Origin: Bacteroidota bacterium
GTDB lineage: Bacteria > Bacteroidota > Bacteroidia > NS11-12g > UBA9320
Reading direction: 5' to 3'
DNA: 64,000 nt
NCBI GenBank assembly: GCA_013359235.1
Contig: JABWCE010000014.1
Coordinates: 1 to 64,000 of the forward strand
In this document: positions 22,316-28,779 of the stretch, piece after piece
How positions within the stretch are numbered: the first letter of the stretch is position 1
Layout of the letters: the number at the start of each line of letters is the position of its first letter
Translations under genes and position numbers: made by a program
The notes under the pieces: model-generated
Told to the model about the DNA's origin: nothing
What the model saw: the letters and a program-made list of their open reading frames with translations, nothing else
The model's database searches: none

Positions 22316-23362
22316 TTACTCTAAGGCTTTGGAAAGCGAAAAACTGAATATAGTTCCCGAACCTGGAGTGCTTATTACTTCTATTTTTTGGCGATGTGCT
22401 TCAATTATGTGTTTTACAATTGAAAGTCCTAATCCTGAACCTCCTTTTTCGCGACTTCGCGAATTGTCAACTCTATAAAATCTTTCAAAAATTCTACCAA
22501 GGTGTTTATTGTCTATGCCTATTCCATTATCAGAAATTTCAATTTTAATATAGTTTTCGAGTTCGTAAATTCTCAAAATAGTTTTACCACCTTCTTGTTT
22601 GCCGTATTTTATCGAGTTTAAAATAAGATTGCTCAATACTTGTTTAATACGGTTTCGGTCGGCAGTTACAAATATTTCATTCGTTTTTTTAAAATCAATA
22701 AAAATATTGTTTTTGCCTGCATTGTCGTTTTCGTTTTCAATAACTTCAATTATTAGTTCATTTATCTCAAAAGTTTCAAAATCAAGTTTAAGTTCGCCTG
22801 TTTCTAATAGACTTATAGTTTGCAAATCGTCAATAATGCTTATCATTCTATCAACATTTTTATCGGCTTTTTCGAGAAAATTTATAGATATTTTTTTGTC
22901 ATCAATTCCACCTTCAAGTAATGTAGAAATATATCCTTGTATATTGAAAACAGGTGTTTTTAGTTCGTGAGATACATTGCCAATATACTCTCTGCGGTAT
23001 TTTTCGAGTTTATTTAGTTTAAATAATTCATCTTCTACTTTCGAGTTATAAAATTTAAGATTATTTATAATACTTTTTAGTGGGTTAATGCCTGTTTTAT
23101 TATCAATTTTGTTATTGTACAAGGGATTTTTTTGTATTAATTCATAAATTTTATGTGTATTGTGCAATATTATAAAGTACAAACAAATAAAGATACATGA
23201 AGCATTTACAAGCCAAAAAGTTGAAATTTCACTTAATAATAAATCGAATTCTATTTGTTTTTTGTTTGCAATAAACCAAATTGCAGCTATTAGTAAAAAA
23301 GTTATAAAAAACGAAATAATAACTGAAACAAAAAATAACCACCAATATCCTTTATTATTCAT
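22316..23362 (-). CDS. Sensor histidine kinase, PhoR-like
   Basis: A 348-residue membrane kinase with two N-terminal membrane segments (about residues 8-31 and 46-64) and almost no periplasmic part. The H box is NVSHELKTPVFNIQGYI (phospho-acceptor His near 131), the N box NLILNSIKYG, the G boxes ISDNGIGI and GGSGLGLSIVKH. A short sensor region without a large periplasmic domain and its place 4 bases downstream of the PiT transporter fit a PhoR-type phosphate kinase that senses transporter state. No response regulator gene is in the window, so its partner lies elsewhere. The kinase call is certain; the PhoR role is inferred from context. Confidence 0.9.
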   Translation of the reverse strand: MNNKGYWWLFFVSVIISFFITFLLIAAIWFIANKKQIEFDLLLSEISTFWLVNASCIFICLYFIILHNTHKIYELIQKNPLYNNKIDNKTGINPLKSIINNLKFYNSKVEDELFKLNKLEKYRREYIGNVSHELKTPVFNIQGYISTLLEGGIDDKKISINFLEKADKNVDRMISIIDDLQTISLLETGELKLDFETFEINELIIEVIENENDNAGKNNIFIDFKKTNEIFVTADRNRIKQVLSNLILNSIKYGKQEGGKTILRIYELENYIKIEISDNGIGIDNKHLGRIFERFYRVDNSRSREKGGSGLGLSIVKHIIEAHRQKIEVISTPGSGTIFSFSLSKALE

Positions 23363-23366
23363 TTAG

Positions 23367-25019
23367 CTAAACAAAAAACTGTACGAGAAAATACACTGCT
23401 GCAGCAATAATAGCAGTTACAGGTATGGTAAGTACCCATGCCCAAAGCAAACTAATGGTAACCCCCCATTTTACAGACGAAACGCCCTTTACCAAACCTA
23501 CACCAACAATAGAGCCAGTAATAGTATGTGTTGTACTTACGGGTATTCCCATTTGCTCTGTGAGAAACAATGTAGTAGCACCTGCGGTTTCGGCACTTAC
23601 ACCTTCAAGCGGGGTAACTTTGGTTATTTTGCTACCCATAGTTTTTACTATACGCCAGCCGCCAGAAAGTGTACCTAAGCCTATGGCGAGATAACATGAA
23701 AGCGGAACCCAATCGGGCATTGATTTTATATCGGTTAAGTTTCCGCTTGTGATAAGGGCTGCGGCAATTATCCCCATTACTTTTTGGGCATCGTTTCCGC
23801 CATGTCCAATGCTGAACGCTGCCGATGACATCAATTGCATTTTTTTGAATGAATTTACTGTTCGGCTCACGGTTCGCTCTTTTATTTTTTCGGTATATAT
23901 AAATGATAGAGCAAAAACTAATAATGATAATATAATTGCTATTCGCAAATATTTGTTATTGGCTTTTTCAACTTCTTTTATCAGTTCCTTCTTTATGTCT
24001 ATTATAATAGTTTTTTTAAACTTGTTTTTGTCTCTTATTTCTTTGCCAAATGAGGTATAAATAGCCGATAATAGCGAATCGTTTCCATGTTTGTAATTTT
24101 TATTTACTATTAATTTTATGCTGTCAACTATTTCTTTTGACTCGTTGTACTGGCTTTCGAAAGATTTGTCATTTTTTGCTTTGTATTTGAGCATTTCAAG
24201 TTTAAAAAATAATGCTACTTTTTCATTGGTTTTTGAAATTGCAGCATCGGTTAAATCAACATGATTTACAATACTATCAACCGTTACTGCCGCACCTTTT
24301 GTTTCGTATAGTTTTGCAAATGGTTTACATTTATCAGAATTTTCTTTGGCTTGTTTTAATTTTTCTGCTACTGAATTGTCGTGTTTTATTTCAAGTTCAT
24401 AGGTGTATTTATCAACTTTAAAAAATTTCTTTAAGTTTTCATTTATTTTATTTTCTTGAAAACCTGTAAAAACCAAGTAAAGTACAGCCGAAGTTAGCAC
24501 TAATATTCCTACTTTAAGCCATGTTTTCAATTGGATAAAAACTAAAGTATAAAAAATAGAAATCATCATACCTATAATTGGAGCAAGAAAAATGAACCAA
24601 ATAGTTTTATTTATTTTACCACTGTCAATTATTTCGTTTATAGGCATAAATCCCTTTGTAATAAAAGCATGACAAAGTGCTGCCCCTGCAAAACCGCCAA
24701 TTAAAGTATGCGAAGACGAAGAAGGAATGCCGTAATACCATGTTACCAAATTCCATGCTATTGAACCAATCAAACCGCTTAATATTACCGGAAGAGTAAT
24801 AAAATCAGAATACACGGTTTTACCTATTGTATTTGCTACAGCATGGTCTTTAAAAATAAGAAATGCTATAAAATTGAAGAATGCTGCCCAAAGTACAGCT
24901 TGAAAAGGTGTTAATACTTTTGTTGAAACTATTGTAGCAATTGAGTTTGCGGCATCGTGAAACCCATTTATAAAATCAAAAATAAGTGCTAATGCAATAA
25001 CTATAATAAGTAACTCCAT
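23367..25019 (-). CDS. pit: PiT-family inorganic phosphate transporter
   Basis: A 550-residue inner membrane protein. Both PiT signature repeats are present: FDFINGFHDAANSIATIVST near the N-terminus and FSIGHGGNDAQKVMGIIAAA near residue 400, each with the GxxDxxN-type core. The transporter symports phosphate with protons, sodium or metal-phosphate. A soluble insert of roughly 150 residues (about 190-350, lysine/glutamate-rich) splits the two halves, as in longer Bacteroidota members. It lies between the DUF47 protein (15 bases upstream) and the histidine kinase (4 bases downstream). A predicted phosphate operator lies upstream of the operon. Confidence 0.93.
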   Translation of the reverse strand: MELLIIVIALALIFDFINGFHDAANSIATIVSTKVLTPFQAVLWAAFFNFIAFLIFKDHAVANTIGKTVYSDFITLPVILSGLIGSIAWNLVTWYYGIPSSSSHTLIGGFAGAALCHAFITKGFMPINEIIDSGKINKTIWFIFLAPIIGMMISIFYTLVFIQLKTWLKVGILVLTSAVLYLVFTGFQENKINENLKKFFKVDKYTYELEIKHDNSVAEKLKQAKENSDKCKPFAKLYETKGAAVTVDSIVNHVDLTDAAISKTNEKVALFFKLEMLKYKAKNDKSFESQYNESKEIVDSIKLIVNKNYKHGNDSLLSAIYTSFGKEIRDKNKFKKTIIIDIKKELIKEVEKANNKYLRIAIILSLLVFALSFIYTEKIKERTVSRTVNSFKKMQLMSSAAFSIGHGGNDAQKVMGIIAAALITSGNLTDIKSMPDWVPLSCYLAIGLGTLSGGWRIVKTMGSKITKVTPLEGVSAETAGATTLFLTEQMGIPVSTTHTITGSIVGVGLVKGVSSVKWGVTISLLWAWVLTIPVTAIIAAAVYFLVQFFV

Positions 25020-25034
25020 ATAAATTTTTATTTG

Positions 25035-25682
25035 TTAGGCATTTTTTACCTGAATAGATTTAATAATATCAGCCGCATCTTCTGCTTTATCAGTAGCTGT
25101 TTCTAAGGTGGCGTATATTTCTTTCATTTTTATAAGTTTTATAGGGTCTTTTTCTTCTTCAAACAATTGCCCTATTGCCATATCAAAAATATCATCGGCA
25201 TGGTTTTCAATTGAATTTATCCTCACATAAGCTTCATTTATTTTTTCAATATGTTTAAGATTATGAAGTTGCCCAACAGCTATTTGCAATTCTTCGCTGC
25301 ATTTCAATATAAGCTCGGCAAGTTTTATAATTTCAGGAGTAATATCATTAGGTTCTATTTTATAAATTATTATTCTGCTTGCTACCCCATTTATATAATC
25401 AACAATATCATCAATTATTACTGTTAATGAATGAATATCTTCCCTGTCAAACGGGGTAATAAAACTTTTGCTTAGTTGTTTTAATATATCATGAGTAATT
25501 CCGTCACCAACATGCTCCATTCTTTCAATTTCATTTCTCAAATTTTTTCTTTCGTCAGCCGAAGTAGATTTAACTAACTCTACAAGCAATTTCGATATCT
25601 CTACAAGATTATTTGTTGCACTTTGAAACATTTCGAAAAACTTTCTTTCTTTGGGGATAAAAAAACTTAATAAGTTTGCCAT
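25035..25682 (-). CDS. DUF47 (PhoU-like) Pit accessory protein
   Basis: A 215-residue all-helical cytoplasmic protein matching DUF47 from start to end (FFIPKERKFFEMFQSATNNL, ERMEHVGDGITHDILKQLSK, FDREDIHSLTVIIDDIVDYI). This is the PhoU-like family usually encoded next to PiT transporters, where it modulates uptake. Acidic metal-binding patches (DDIVDY, HADDIFD) are kept. First gene of the DUF47-PiT-kinase operon, divergent from recJ. Confidence 0.93.
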   Translation of the reverse strand: MANLLSFFIPKERKFFEMFQSATNNLVEISKLLVELVKSTSADERKNLRNEIERMEHVGDGITHDILKQLSKSFITPFDREDIHSLTVIIDDIVDYINGVASRIIIYKIEPNDITPEIIKLAELILKCSEELQIAVGQLHNLKHIEKINEAYVRINSIENHADDIFDMAIGQLFEEEKDPIKLIKMKEIYATLETATDKAEDAADIIKSIQVKNA

Positions 25683-25701
25683 AGTAATTTTGATTTTTAT
25701 G

Positions 25702-25708
25702 ATGCAAA
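25702..25708 (-). promoter_or_regulatory. TTTGCAT -7-like element of the DUF47-PiT operon
   Basis: TTTGCAT on the minus strand, preceded by TAATC, so one base longer than the ideal TAnnTTTG. It lies 30 bases downstream of the last TTAA of the three-unit repeat, and about 20 bases before the DUF47 ATG. The porin promoter has the same TTTGCAT at the same phase. Confidence 0.45.
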
Positions 25709-25727
25709 GATTAATCTTGTCATCTAT

Positions 25728-25760
25728 TCTAAAGTTAAGAAATTGTTAAGTTTTTTTTAA
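25728..25760 (-). promoter_or_regulatory. Putative phosphate operator (three TTAA-led 11-bp repeats)
   Basis: Read on the minus strand: TTAAAAAAAAC, TTAACAATTTC, TTAACTTTAGA, three units at an exact 11-bp period, ending 30 bases from a TTTGCAT element. Direct repeats with an 11-bp period are the known form of Pho boxes bound by PhoB/PhoP/SphR-type regulators; CTTAAC-like units are typical of the cyanobacterial version. The same arrangement occurs before the OprO/P porin. The site abuts the recJ start codon on the other strand. Confidence 0.55.
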
Positions 25761-25763
25761 TAA

Positions 25764-27470
25764 ATGTCATTAAAAAATTGGATAAATATGCCGAAGCCCG
25801 ATTTGCAAGGGGTTGAAAAAGTTCAAACTTTGTTAAATGTAAACCGCATTATTGCAAGTTTGCTTTTTCAACGTGGAATTTCGGATTTTGAAACAGCAAA
25901 AAAATTTTTCAGACCATCGCTTGATAATCTTTACGACCCTTTTCTTTTCAGAGATATGAAAAAGGCAGTAGATAGGATAAACCTTTCAATTTCTAAAAAC
26001 GAAAAAATATTGATTTATGGCGATTATGATGTTGATGGAACAACTGCCGTTGCAGTAGTTTATTCGTTTTTAAGAAAATTTACTGAATCTATTGAATATT
26101 ATATCCCCGACCGCTATACCGAAGGCTATGGAGTTTCGCAAAAAGGTGTTGATTATGCTATAAATAATAATTTTAAACTCATTATTACTCTCGATTGTGG
26201 TATTCGTTCAGAAAAACTTGTAGAATATGCCGCAAATAATAATGTTGATTTTATAATTTGCGACCATCATCTTCCTGCAAAAAATCTTCCTCCAGCTATT
26301 GCCGTTTTAGATGCTAAAGCAGAAGGCGAAACATATCCATTCAAAGAATTATCAGGATGTGGTGTAGGTTTCAAACTCATACAAGCAATTTGTAAAGACA
26401 AATGTTTACCTGATGAAAATTTTCTTAAATATATTGATATTGTTGCTGTAAGTATTTGTTGCGATATCGTTCCGATAGTTGATGAAAACCGCATAATAGT
26501 TAAATTCGGCACTGAAAAACTAAATAATAACCCATCGCCAGGCTTAAAAATTTTGAAAGAAAGTTGTATAAATAAAAAAGACCTTACAACATCAGATATT
26601 GTATTTTACTTAGGTCCAAGAATAAATGCGGTAGGCAGGTTAAGCGATGCAAAAGATGCCGTAAAACTTCTATTAGCAAAAAACGAAGATGAAGCCGAGA
26701 AATATGTTGAAGTTTTGAATAAAAACAATAGTGAAAGAAAATCTATTGACGAAAGTATTACAGCACAAGCTCTTGAAATGATTGAAAAAGACAAATACCA
26801 TCTCAACAAATTTACAAATGTGTTATACAATCAAAAATGGCACAAAGGTGTAGTAGGAATTGTAGCTTCAAGAGTAATAGAATACCATTACAGACCAACA
26901 ATAATATTAACAGGTGATGATAGAAAAATTACAGGCTCTGCAAGGTCTATTGAGGGTTTTGATATACACGAAGCATTAATTGAATGTAGTGATTTGCTCT
27001 TGCAATTCGGTGGGCATAGCCATGCTGCTGGTTTGAGCCTTGATGCTGCAAATCTTGAAAAATTTAAAGACAAGTTTGATAATGTTGCCAGTAAAAAATT
27101 AACCCGAGAAATGCTTGTTGAAACATTTAAATACGATATTGAAATAAAACCTGAAGAAATTACCGATTCGTTGTTAAAATTATTAAAACAAATGGAACCT
27201 TACGGACCCGGGAATATGACACCTGTATTTTATATATCAGGCTTAAAAGATACAGGAATGGTAAAGCAAATGGGTAGCGACAATTCTCACCTCAGCATAA
27301 ATGTGATATTACCCAATATTTCGAAACCTGTAAAAGGAATTGCCTTTAAATTGGGGGAAAAATATGAAAAAATAAAAAATGGAAATTCTTTCGAGAGCTT
27401 GATTTCCTTACATGAAGAAGAGTTTAATGGCGTAAAAAACATTCAGATTTTAATAAAAGATATAAAATAA
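25764..27470 (+). CDS. recJ: Single-stranded-DNA-specific exonuclease RecJ
   Basis: A 568-residue DHH-superfamily 5'-3' exonuclease used in recombination and mismatch repair. DHH motifs: LIYGDYDVDGTTAVAVVYS (near residue 78), TLDCGIRS, IICDHHLPAKNLP; DHHA1 motif FGGHSHAAGLSL near 415; then the OB-fold end. All metal-binding residues are visible and the length is normal. It is divergent from the phosphate operon and followed 104 bases later by the porin, which seems to have its own promoter. Confidence 0.96.
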   Translation: MSLKNWINMPKPDLQGVEKVQTLLNVNRIIASLLFQRGISDFETAKKFFRPSLDNLYDPFLFRDMKKAVDRINLSISKNEKILIYGDYDVDGTTAVAVVYSFLRKFTESIEYYIPDRYTEGYGVSQKGVDYAINNNFKLIITLDCGIRSEKLVEYAANNNVDFIICDHHLPAKNLPPAIAVLDAKAEGETYPFKELSGCGVGFKLIQAICKDKCLPDENFLKYIDIVAVSICCDIVPIVDENRIIVKFGTEKLNNNPSPGLKILKESCINKKDLTTSDIVFYLGPRINAVGRLSDAKDAVKLLLAKNEDEAEKYVEVLNKNNSERKSIDESITAQALEMIEKDKYHLNKFTNVLYNQKWHKGVVGIVASRVIEYHYRPTIILTGDDRKITGSARSIEGFDIHEALIECSDLLLQFGGHSHAAGLSLDAANLEKFKDKFDNVASKKLTREMLVETFKYDIEIKPEEITDSLLKLLKQMEPYGPGNMTPVFYISGLKDTGMVKQMGSDNSHLSINVILPNISKPVKGIAFKLGEKYEKIKNGNSFESLISLHEEEFNGVKNIQILIKDIK

Positions 27471-27511
27471 AAATTCAATGTTAAATTTTCGTTAAGTGTT
27501 ATGAAAGTAAA

Positions 27512-27544
27512 TTAACGTAAAATTAATAATCAATTAAAAAGTAT
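27512..27544 (+). promoter_or_regulatory. Putative phosphate operator of the porin gene (three TTAA-led 11-bp repeats)
   Basis: TTAACGTAAAA, TTAATAATCAA, TTAAAAAGTAT: three units at an exact 11-bp period with TTAA at 41, 30 and 19 bases before TTTGCAT (27553). The DUF47-PiT operon has TTAA at 52, 41 and 30, the same phase. An oppositely oriented pair, GTTAAATTTTCGTTAAG (27480-27496), also with 11-bp period, lies just upstream and resembles GTTAAGAAATTGTTAAG at the phosphate operon. Region is AT-rich, so chance must be considered. Confidence 0.5.
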
Positions 27545-27552
27545 ATTATTTT

Positions 27553-27559
27553 TTTGCAT
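27553..27559 (+). promoter_or_regulatory. TTTGCAT -7-like element of the porin gene
   Basis: TTTGCAT in a run of T, preceded by TATTATTTT, 15 bases before the porin ATG. It resembles the -7 element of other genes in the window (TTTGCA) and matches the one of the phosphate operon. Confidence 0.4.
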
Positions 27560-27573
27560 TAAATAAAAAACAA

Positions 27574-28779
27574 ATGAAAAGATTATTAAATTTTTCTGCA
27601 CTCCTACTATTTATTTTGTTTGGTATCTTAGTTCCCAAAAATTCAAAATCTCAAGATAACAAAAAAACATTTTCGGAAAATTGGTATGAAAAAATATCAA
27701 TTCGCGGATATGCACAATTCAGATATAACCGATTATTTGAAACCAACGATTCGCTAAAGTGCGAACAGTGCGACAAATCGTGGGGTAATGGCAGTTTTTT
27801 TATTAGAAGAATGCGTTTGGTTTTTTACGGAAATATTTCTGATAGAATTTTTTTATATATTCAACCTGATTTTGCCACAAGCACATCGGGCACAATACTA
27901 AATTTTGGACAACTGCGAGATGCTTATTTCGACTTTTCGTTTGATAAAAACAAAGAATACAGGCTTAGAATTGGTCAAAGTAAGATACCTTACGGTTTTG
28001 AAAATCTTCAATCAAGCCAAAACAGATTGTCATTAGACCGTAGCGATGCCTTGAACAGTGCAATATCAAACGAACGAGATTTGGGTGCTTTTTTTTACTG
28101 GGCTCCTCATAAAACAAGAAAATTATTCAATTCGCTTGTAAACGAAGGTTATAAAGGCAGTGGTGATTATGGTGTTTTGGGGGTGGGGGTATTCAATGGT
28201 CAAACATCCAATAAAAGCGATTTGAACAAAAACTTACATGTTGTTTCGCGAATTTCATACCCGTTTTCTATCAATGGGCAAACTGTAGAAGCAAGTGTAC
28301 AGGCTTATAGAGGCAAATATGTTTTAGAAAATAAATCTGAAAAAACTAAGGTAAACAATGATTTGAATTACCTTGATCAAAGGATGGCTGCAAGTTTTAT
28401 TCTTTATCCTAAACCATTGGGTTTACAAGCCGAGTACAATATAGGAAAAGGTCCTGAATTTAATAAGTTTACAGATTCAATAGAAACAAAGGAACTTAAA
28501 GGTGGTTATGTTTTAGTCAATTATTTTATAAAGTATAAAAATCAATTAATAATCCCATTTATTAAATATAATTATTATAAAGGAGGGAAAAAACATGAAC
28601 TTGATGCCAGAAGCTATTTAGTTAAAGAACTCGATATAGCAGCCGAATGGCAACCTGTGAAAAATTTTGAACTTGTAGTAATGTACACCATGTCAGAACG
28701 AAGGTTTGAAGATTACAAAATGCAAAATAATTTACAAAAAGGTAATTTGATGCGAATACAAGCTCAATTCAATTTTTAA
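27574..28779 (+). CDS. OprO/OprP-type outer membrane porin (Porin_O_P family)
   Basis: A 401-residue protein with a signal peptide (about 26 residues, ending NSKSQ) and a beta-barrel through to the C-terminal strand (RIQAQFNF, terminal Phe). Family hallmarks: RGYAQFRYNRLF near the start, FFIRRMRLVFYGNISDRI, and RLRIGQSKIPYGFENLQSSQ. In Pseudomonas the family forms phosphate- and polyphosphate-selective channels; Bacteroidota members are annotated as phosphate-selective porins without much testing. The lysine-based selectivity ladder cannot be judged without a model. A predicted phosphate operator upstream, shared with the PiT operon, supports a phosphate role. Confidence 0.83.
   Translation: MKRLLNFSALLLFILFGILVPKNSKSQDNKKTFSENWYEKISIRGYAQFRYNRLFETNDSLKCEQCDKSWGNGSFFIRRMRLVFYGNISDRIFLYIQPDFATSTSGTILNFGQLRDAYFDFSFDKNKEYRLRIGQSKIPYGFENLQSSQNRLSLDRSDALNSAISNERDLGAFFYWAPHKTRKLFNSLVNEGYKGSGDYGVLGVGVFNGQTSNKSDLNKNLHVVSRISYPFSINGQTVEASVQAYRGKYVLENKSEKTKVNNDLNYLDQRMAASFILYPKPLGLQAEYNIGKGPEFNKFTDSIETKELKGGYVLVNYFIKYKNQLIIPFIKYNYYKGGKKHELDARSYLVKELDIAAEWQPVKNFELVVMYTMSERRFEDYKMQNNLQKGNLMRIQAQFNF

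What the first reader, a model, noticed from the sequence alone, without database searches (positions are those of the whole stretch)
25728..27559. Shared 11-bp-period TTAA operator at the PiT operon and the OprO/P porin: a likely phosphate regulon box
Seen directly: upstream of DUF47-PiT-kinase (minus strand) three TTAA units start at 25760, 25749 and 25738; upstream of the porin (plus strand) at 27512, 27523 and 27534. Each set has an exact 11-bp period. Both lie in the same phase to a TTTGCAT element: 52, 41 and 30 bases before it in one, 41, 30 and 19 in the other. An oppositely oriented pair GTTAA-N6-GTTAAG occurs beside both. Established: Pho boxes for PhoB/PhoP/SphR regulators are direct repeats with 11-bp period, and CTTAAC-like units are typical of the cyanobacterial form. 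Inference: this is the phosphate-starvation operator of this organism, controlling transporter, kinase and porin together. AT-richness makes single TTAA hits common, so the phase match is the main support.
Basis: partly seen in the sequence, partly recalled or inferred. Interest (0 to 1): 0.72.

Follow-up and report, generated by a model that had tools for sequence, protein, structure and literature searches.

The report
Bacteroidota phosphate-starvation operator (Pho box)
Two promoters in this bacterium, one for a phosphate importer and one for an outer-membrane pore gene, carry the same short repeated DNA switch, which recurs at fixed distances before phosphate genes across the Bacteroidota and is very probably the docking site of the phosphate-starvation regulator PhoB.

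Summary
The TTAA triples lie where stated, with exact 11-bp period and the stated distances to TTTGCAT; they are the only two such triples in 64 kb (3 of 100 shuffles reach two). The anatomy needs correction. The true unit is YTTAACA, in pairs at 11 bp. The PiT box is 25728-25751 (-).

A weight matrix trained only on foreign DUF47-PiT promoters ranks these two boxes 1st and 2nd of 127,954 window positions. In all seven congeners the PiT units sit exactly 41 and 30 bases before TTTG, as in three pstS promoters; in 33 of 39 foreign promoters they sit at 30 and 19, one repeat closer. The same matrix finds boxes before porin, pstS and PhoR-like kinase genes. The genome encodes one PhoB-like regulator, pairing by context with the kinase in this operon.

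By count there is no genome-wide excess, so the regulon is small. Binding, induction and sign are untested. I judge it a Pho box with a Bacteroidota sequence that I found in no held paper.

The parts
25728..25751 (-). Pho box of the DUF47-PiT-kinase operon, ACTTAACAATTTCTTAACTTTAGA; TTAAC units start 41 and 30 bases before TTTG
   Evidence: Rank 1 of 127,954 window positions with a matrix trained on foreign genomes, 19.3 bits against 11.0 for rank 3; units and phase kept in 7 of 7 congeners; only exact CTTAAC-N5-CTTAAC in the 2.65-Mb genome
25757..25760 (-).
   Evidence: TTAA at this position in only 1 of 6 congeners
25705..25708 (-). TTTG of the Bacteroidota-type -7 promoter element (TTTGCAT) of the DUF47-PiT operon
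   Evidence: Invariant in 7 congeners; TAnnTTTG consensus from established knowledge
27474..27497 (-). Distal Pho box of the porin promoter, ACTTAACGAAAATTTAACATTGAA, read against the gene
   Evidence: Rank 2 of 127,954, 18.3 bits; one of 4 genome places with CTTAAC-N5-CTTAAC at up to 1 mismatch; counterparts in G001, G003 and G004 porin promoters
27510..27537 (+).
   Evidence: Rank 7, 8.3 bits; TAAC/TAAT(/TAAC) at 11-bp period in G002-G005 porin promoters, displaced by about 2 bases; G002 copy scores 18.8
27553..27556 (+). TTTG of the -7 promoter element of the porin
   Evidence: TTTGCA present in all six congeneric porin promoters aligned
25035..25682 (-). DUF47 (PhoU_div), first gene of the operon
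   Evidence: PF01865, 1.8e-27
23367..25019 (-). PiT phosphate transporter (550 aa)
   Evidence: PF01384, 2.8e-92
22316..23362 (-). PhoR-like sensor histidine kinase
   Evidence: HisKA + HATPase_c; best NCBIfam models PnpS and phoR_proteo, below cut-off
25764..27470 (+). RecJ, divergent gene whose ATG is about 13 bases from the edge of the PiT box
   Evidence: DHH, DHHA1 and RecJ_OB domains; position
27574..28779 (+). OprO/P-type porin
   Evidence: PF07396, 2.8e-31

Best explanation
Both promoters carry Pho boxes, operators for a PhoB-type response regulator. Under phosphate limitation the PhoR-like kinase of the PiT operon most likely phosphorylates the single PhoB-like regulator (contig 39). 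The regulator then binds head to tail on 11-bp YTTAACA repeats set one or two repeat lengths upstream of the -7 element, and recruits RNA polymerase to DUF47-PiT-kinase and to the porin gene. Shown by sequence: the repeats, their phase, their conservation, their recurrence before phosphate genes, and a PhoB-like regulator with a PhoB-type recognition helix. Inferred: binding by that regulator, activation rather than repression, and pairing of kinase and regulator (from gene neighbourhoods only).
For: Seven congeneric PiT promoters: the two TTAAC units are 98.6% conserved against 60-64% for the flanks, always 41 and 30 before TTTG. Three congeneric pstS promoters have the same phase. Foreign Bacteroidota DUF47 promoters: TTAAC/GTTAA pairs at lag 11 in 31 of 68 against 11 of 285 controls, p=8e-17; first unit exactly 30 before TTTG in 33 of 39. 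Foreign-trained matrix ranks the window boxes 1 and 2. In 919 kb of foreign DNA it has 72 hits, 55 before DUF47, others before both porin orthologues present, six PhoR-like kinases and next to one PhoB-like gene. 7 of 17 class-wide pstS promoters score 14 or more against 9 of 285 controls, p=4e-6. Of the genome's three OmpR-type regulators the contig-39 one is most PhoB-like, keeps PhoB base-contact residues T194 and V197, and has Lys at 201 and 219. Its orthologue and the kinase's sit side by side in L113 and L127.
Against: No binding or expression data. The PhoB and PhoR models match below their curated cut-offs. The genome-wide count of loose matches does not exceed the reversed control. 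One higher-scoring match (19.9) lies at a ribosomal-protein locus, apparently in the coding end of rpmI. In Flavobacterium johnsoniae the OprP gene of the phoBR cluster was not induced by phosphate depletion (PMC8115612). Some relatives (L013, L016) lack a recognisable box before DUF47.
Confidence: 0.85

Rival explanations
1. The boxes bind PhoB, but at the PiT operon PhoB represses: PiT is shut off when phosphate is scarce, as for orfA-pit in Sinorhizobium meliloti.
For: S. meliloti orfA-pit is repressed upon phosphate starvation (PMC3131613). Here pst is lost in four congeners including this one, while PiT is kept.
Against: In S. meliloti the repressing box lies just upstream of the start codon. 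Here the box is upstream of the -7 element, in exactly the phase of the congeneric pstS promoters, and pst operons are PhoB-activated in the systems described. Pedobacter-type boxes sit 30 and 19 before TTTG, close to the E. coli activating geometry.
Confidence: 0.15
2. The repeats bind another OmpR-family regulator, for example the RprY-like one on contig 37, and have no direct tie to phosphate.
For: Many OmpR-family regulators bind AT-rich direct repeats at 10-11 bp; the KdpE half-site is TTTA(T/C)A (PMC3264566).
Against: The motif recurs before DUF47-PiT, pstS, porin and PhoR-like genes. Residues 193-203 match E. coli PhoB at 8 of 11 in the contig-39 regulator, 3 and 5 of 11 in the other two.
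Confidence: 0.07
3. Chance arrangement of TTAA in AT-rich DNA.
For: 32% G+C; loose genome-wide counts do not exceed the control.
Against: Exact phase conserved in 7 of 7 congeners while the spacer has only 10-40% identity; foreign-trained matrix ranks 1 and 2, and none of 8 Markov-shuffled windows reaches either score.
Confidence: 0.02

Closest known systems
Cyanobacterial SphR Pho box (CTTAACCT, 8-bp units with 3-bp linkers)
   Same: 11-bp direct repeats of a CTTAAC unit before phosphate genes (PMC1906773)
   Different: Bacteroidota unit continues YTTAACAWT..., usually two units, and is set against a TTTG -7 element
E. coli PhoB Pho box (two 11-nt units, CTGTCAT)
   Same: Two head-to-tail 11-bp units replacing the upstream promoter element (PMC4415409); PhoB-type recognition helix in the candidate regulator
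   Different: Core TTAAC instead of TGTCA; Lys at positions 201 and 219 of the regulator
Bacteroides fragilis PhoB and its pstC promoter
   Same: Same phylum; PhoB shown to bind the pst promoter and to be needed for pstC expression (PMC3547664)
   Different: Bound on a 512-bp fragment; passages found by the term search give no box sequence
Sinorhizobium meliloti orfA-pit
   Same: DUF47-like plus PiT operon with a Pho box (PMC3131613; that orfA is DUF47-like is from general knowledge)
   Different: Repressed on starvation, box just before the start codon; here the box is upstream of the -7 element

Membership tests
Pho box (PhoB/PhoP/SphR operator) | At least two direct repeats with an 11-bp period | tested here: met
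Pho box (PhoB/PhoP/SphR operator) | Unit resembling a known Pho unit (CTTAACCT type) | tested here: met
   CTTAAC units, compared with the SphR consensus in PMC1906773
Pho box (PhoB/PhoP/SphR operator) | Located in promoters of phosphate-acquisition genes, conserved among relatives | tested here: met
Pho box (PhoB/PhoP/SphR operator) | Fixed placement relative to the promoter core | tested here: met
   41/30 in the genus, 30/19 in 33 of 39 foreign promoters
Pho box (PhoB/PhoP/SphR operator) | A PhoB-type regulator is encoded in the genome | tested here: inconclusive
   Best match of the contig-39 regulator is PhoB, but 199.6 and 199.2 bits against cut-offs of 270 and 296; recognition helix conserved
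Pho box (PhoB/PhoP/SphR operator) | Bound by that regulator | not testable with these tools
   Needs gel shift or footprint
Pho box (PhoB/PhoP/SphR operator) | Confers phosphate-starvation response | not testable with these tools
   Needs expression data
Classical Pst-PhoU-PhoR-PhoB signalling | PstSCAB and PhoU present | tested here: not met
   No PhoU, no PstC and no PstS in this genome; pst absent also from G001-G003, present in G004-G006

The most novel reading that the evidence does not exclude
In this lineage the Pho regulon runs without Pst and PhoU. The genome keeps Pho boxes, a PhoB-like regulator and a PhoR-like kinase, but has lost pstSCAB-phoU. The kinase is encoded with PiT and DUF47, a divergent PhoU-family protein, so DUF47-PiT may be the phosphate sensor that controls PhoR, with the Pho box closing a feedback loop on its own sensor operon.
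Probability: 0.35. Interest if true: 0.72.

Novelty: new member of a known kind. Interest (0 to 1): 0.55.

Why it matters
Bacteroidota are abundant in gut, soil and water, and PhoB control has been shown in B. fragilis, but the held papers I searched give no Pho-box sequence for the phylum. A defined box with fixed spacing lets the Pho regulon be read from any Bacteroidota genome. The lineage also offers a natural test of PhoR control without Pst and PhoU.

Tried and rejected
(2) Genome-wide enrichment by count: none (50 against 76 control at up to 2 mismatches; 5 against 5 at up to 1), so a large regulon is rejected. (3) The TTAA triple as the defining element: rejected in favour of YTTAACA pairs, because the third PiT unit is not conserved. 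(4) Matrix hit at the rpmI/rplT locus (contig 5, 28815; 19.9 bits): appears to lie in the coding end of rpmI, taken as chance. (5) Distant PstS-like proteins of other families (L264-L275): one of twelve upstream stretches scored above 14, and true pst genes were not identified there. (6) Generic sigma-70 promoter scan: at chance level and not suited to the phylum.

Full report
OBSERVATION. Triples of TTAA at 11-bp period occur twice in the window, both here; shuffles give 0.23 on average and 3 of 100 reach two. The genes are DUF47 (PF01865), PiT (PF01384), a histidine kinase, a divergent RecJ, and a Porin_O_P protein (PF07396).

CORRECTED ANATOMY. TTAA is its own reverse complement, so direction comes from the neighbours. 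The unit that relatives share is YTTAACA, normally twice at 11 bp. At PiT it is CTTAACAATTTCTTAAC (25734-25750, minus). At the porin the best copy is CTTAACGAAAATTTAAC (27480-27496, minus), pointing against the gene. The TTAA triple nearer the porin promoter is a second, weaker box. In the 2.65-Mb genome CTTAAC-N5-CTTAAC with up to one mismatch occurs at four places, and two are these.

CONSERVATION IN THE GENUS. In all seven genomes of the genus the DUF47-PiT promoter has the units exactly 41 and 30 bases before TTTG. The ten unit columns are 98.6% conserved; flank and spacer are near 60-64%, and the spacer is only 10-40% identical between this genome and the others. Congeners G004 and G006 carry pstSCAB-phoU beside this locus, and G005 carries it on split contigs. 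Their pstS promoters have TTAAT and TTAAC at the same 41 and 30. Four congeners, including this one, lack PstC and PhoU. In a scan of all seven genomes, five of six exact hits of the extended pattern are DUF47-PiT promoters; hits with one mismatch include porin, pstS and PiT promoters.

CONSERVATION IN THE PHYLUM. Eighty DUF47-PiT loci from other Bacteroidota were fetched; the one congeneric record, L106, was left out of the statistics. TTAAC or GTTAA pairs at lag 11 occur in 31 of 68 non-redundant promoters against 11 of 285 control promoters, with almost nothing at other lags except the internal 5 and 6. In 33 of 39 promoters with the pair, the first unit lies exactly 30 before TTTG or its variant, the second 19. 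That is one 11-bp unit closer than in the window's genus, so on the same helical face. In the second family of the same order and in Chitinophaga the box is often reversed and farther upstream.

INDEPENDENT TEST. A weight matrix trained on the foreign promoters alone ranks the PiT box first (19.3 bits) and the distal porin box second (18.3) among 127,954 positions of the window; third is 11.0, and no Markov-shuffled window reaches either score. The training promoters were chosen by carrying the repeat, so their own scores are circular. The window, porin, kinase and pstS results are not. In 919 kb of foreign DNA the matrix gives 72 hits of 14 bits or more: 55 before DUF47, others before both porin orthologues present (L111, L120), before six PhoR-like kinases, and next to a PhoB-like gene in L113. 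Seven of 17 pstS promoters across the class score 14 or more against 9 of 285 controls.

REGULATOR. The genome has three OmpR-type regulators. One adjoins a kinase at a copper/silver-type locus and one is RprY-like. The third (contig 39, no kinase beside it) is closest to PhoB models, below their cut-offs. Its recognition helix is DRTIDVHIRKIR against DRTVDVHIRRLR in E. coli PhoB. The base-contacting T194 and V197 are kept; R201 and R219 are Lys (contacts from PMC3264566). Orthologues of this regulator and of the window's kinase are adjacent in L113 and L127, and in most Sphingobacteriaceae loci the kinase orthologue directly precedes the box and DUF47.

LIMITS. No binding or expression experiment was available. 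The sign is inferred from the shared geometry with pstS; S. meliloti orfA-pit shows that PiT operons can be repressed on starvation. F. johnsoniae OprP was not induced at low phosphate. By count, the loose pattern is not enriched in the genome, so the regulon is small or most members are too diverged to see. No Bacteroidota Pho-box sequence was found in the held papers, which is not proof that none exists.

Noticed in passing
23367-28779; G000-G006: pstSCAB-phoU is present beside this locus in three congeners and absent from this genome and three others, while PiT, the PhoR-like kinase and the Pho boxes stay: a Pho system without Pst and PhoU.
   Followed up: partly
25728-25766: The PiT box ends about 13 bases before the recJ start codon, so a bound regulator could also affect recJ; congeners have the same arrangement.
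   Followed up: no
L151, L169, L179, L180, L182, L184: Chitinophaga DUF47 promoters carry the box reversed (AATTAATAATTCCTTAACAYTGGA) about 90 bases before the start codon.
   Followed up: partly
L131, L145, L148, L150, L155, L178: The PhoR-like kinase genes upstream of DUF47 have their own matrix hits, suggesting autoregulation.
   Followed up: partly
L190 1501-1521 and L237 1501-1521: A TTTAATAATCAYTTAATTTTA element before an mraZ-like gene is shared by this genome and G001; it resembles the box but lacks the C of TTAAC.
   Followed up: no
23367-25019: The PiT protein is 550 aa with a long central insertion between the two PHO4 halves, shared by congeners and some other Bacteroidota.
   Followed up: no
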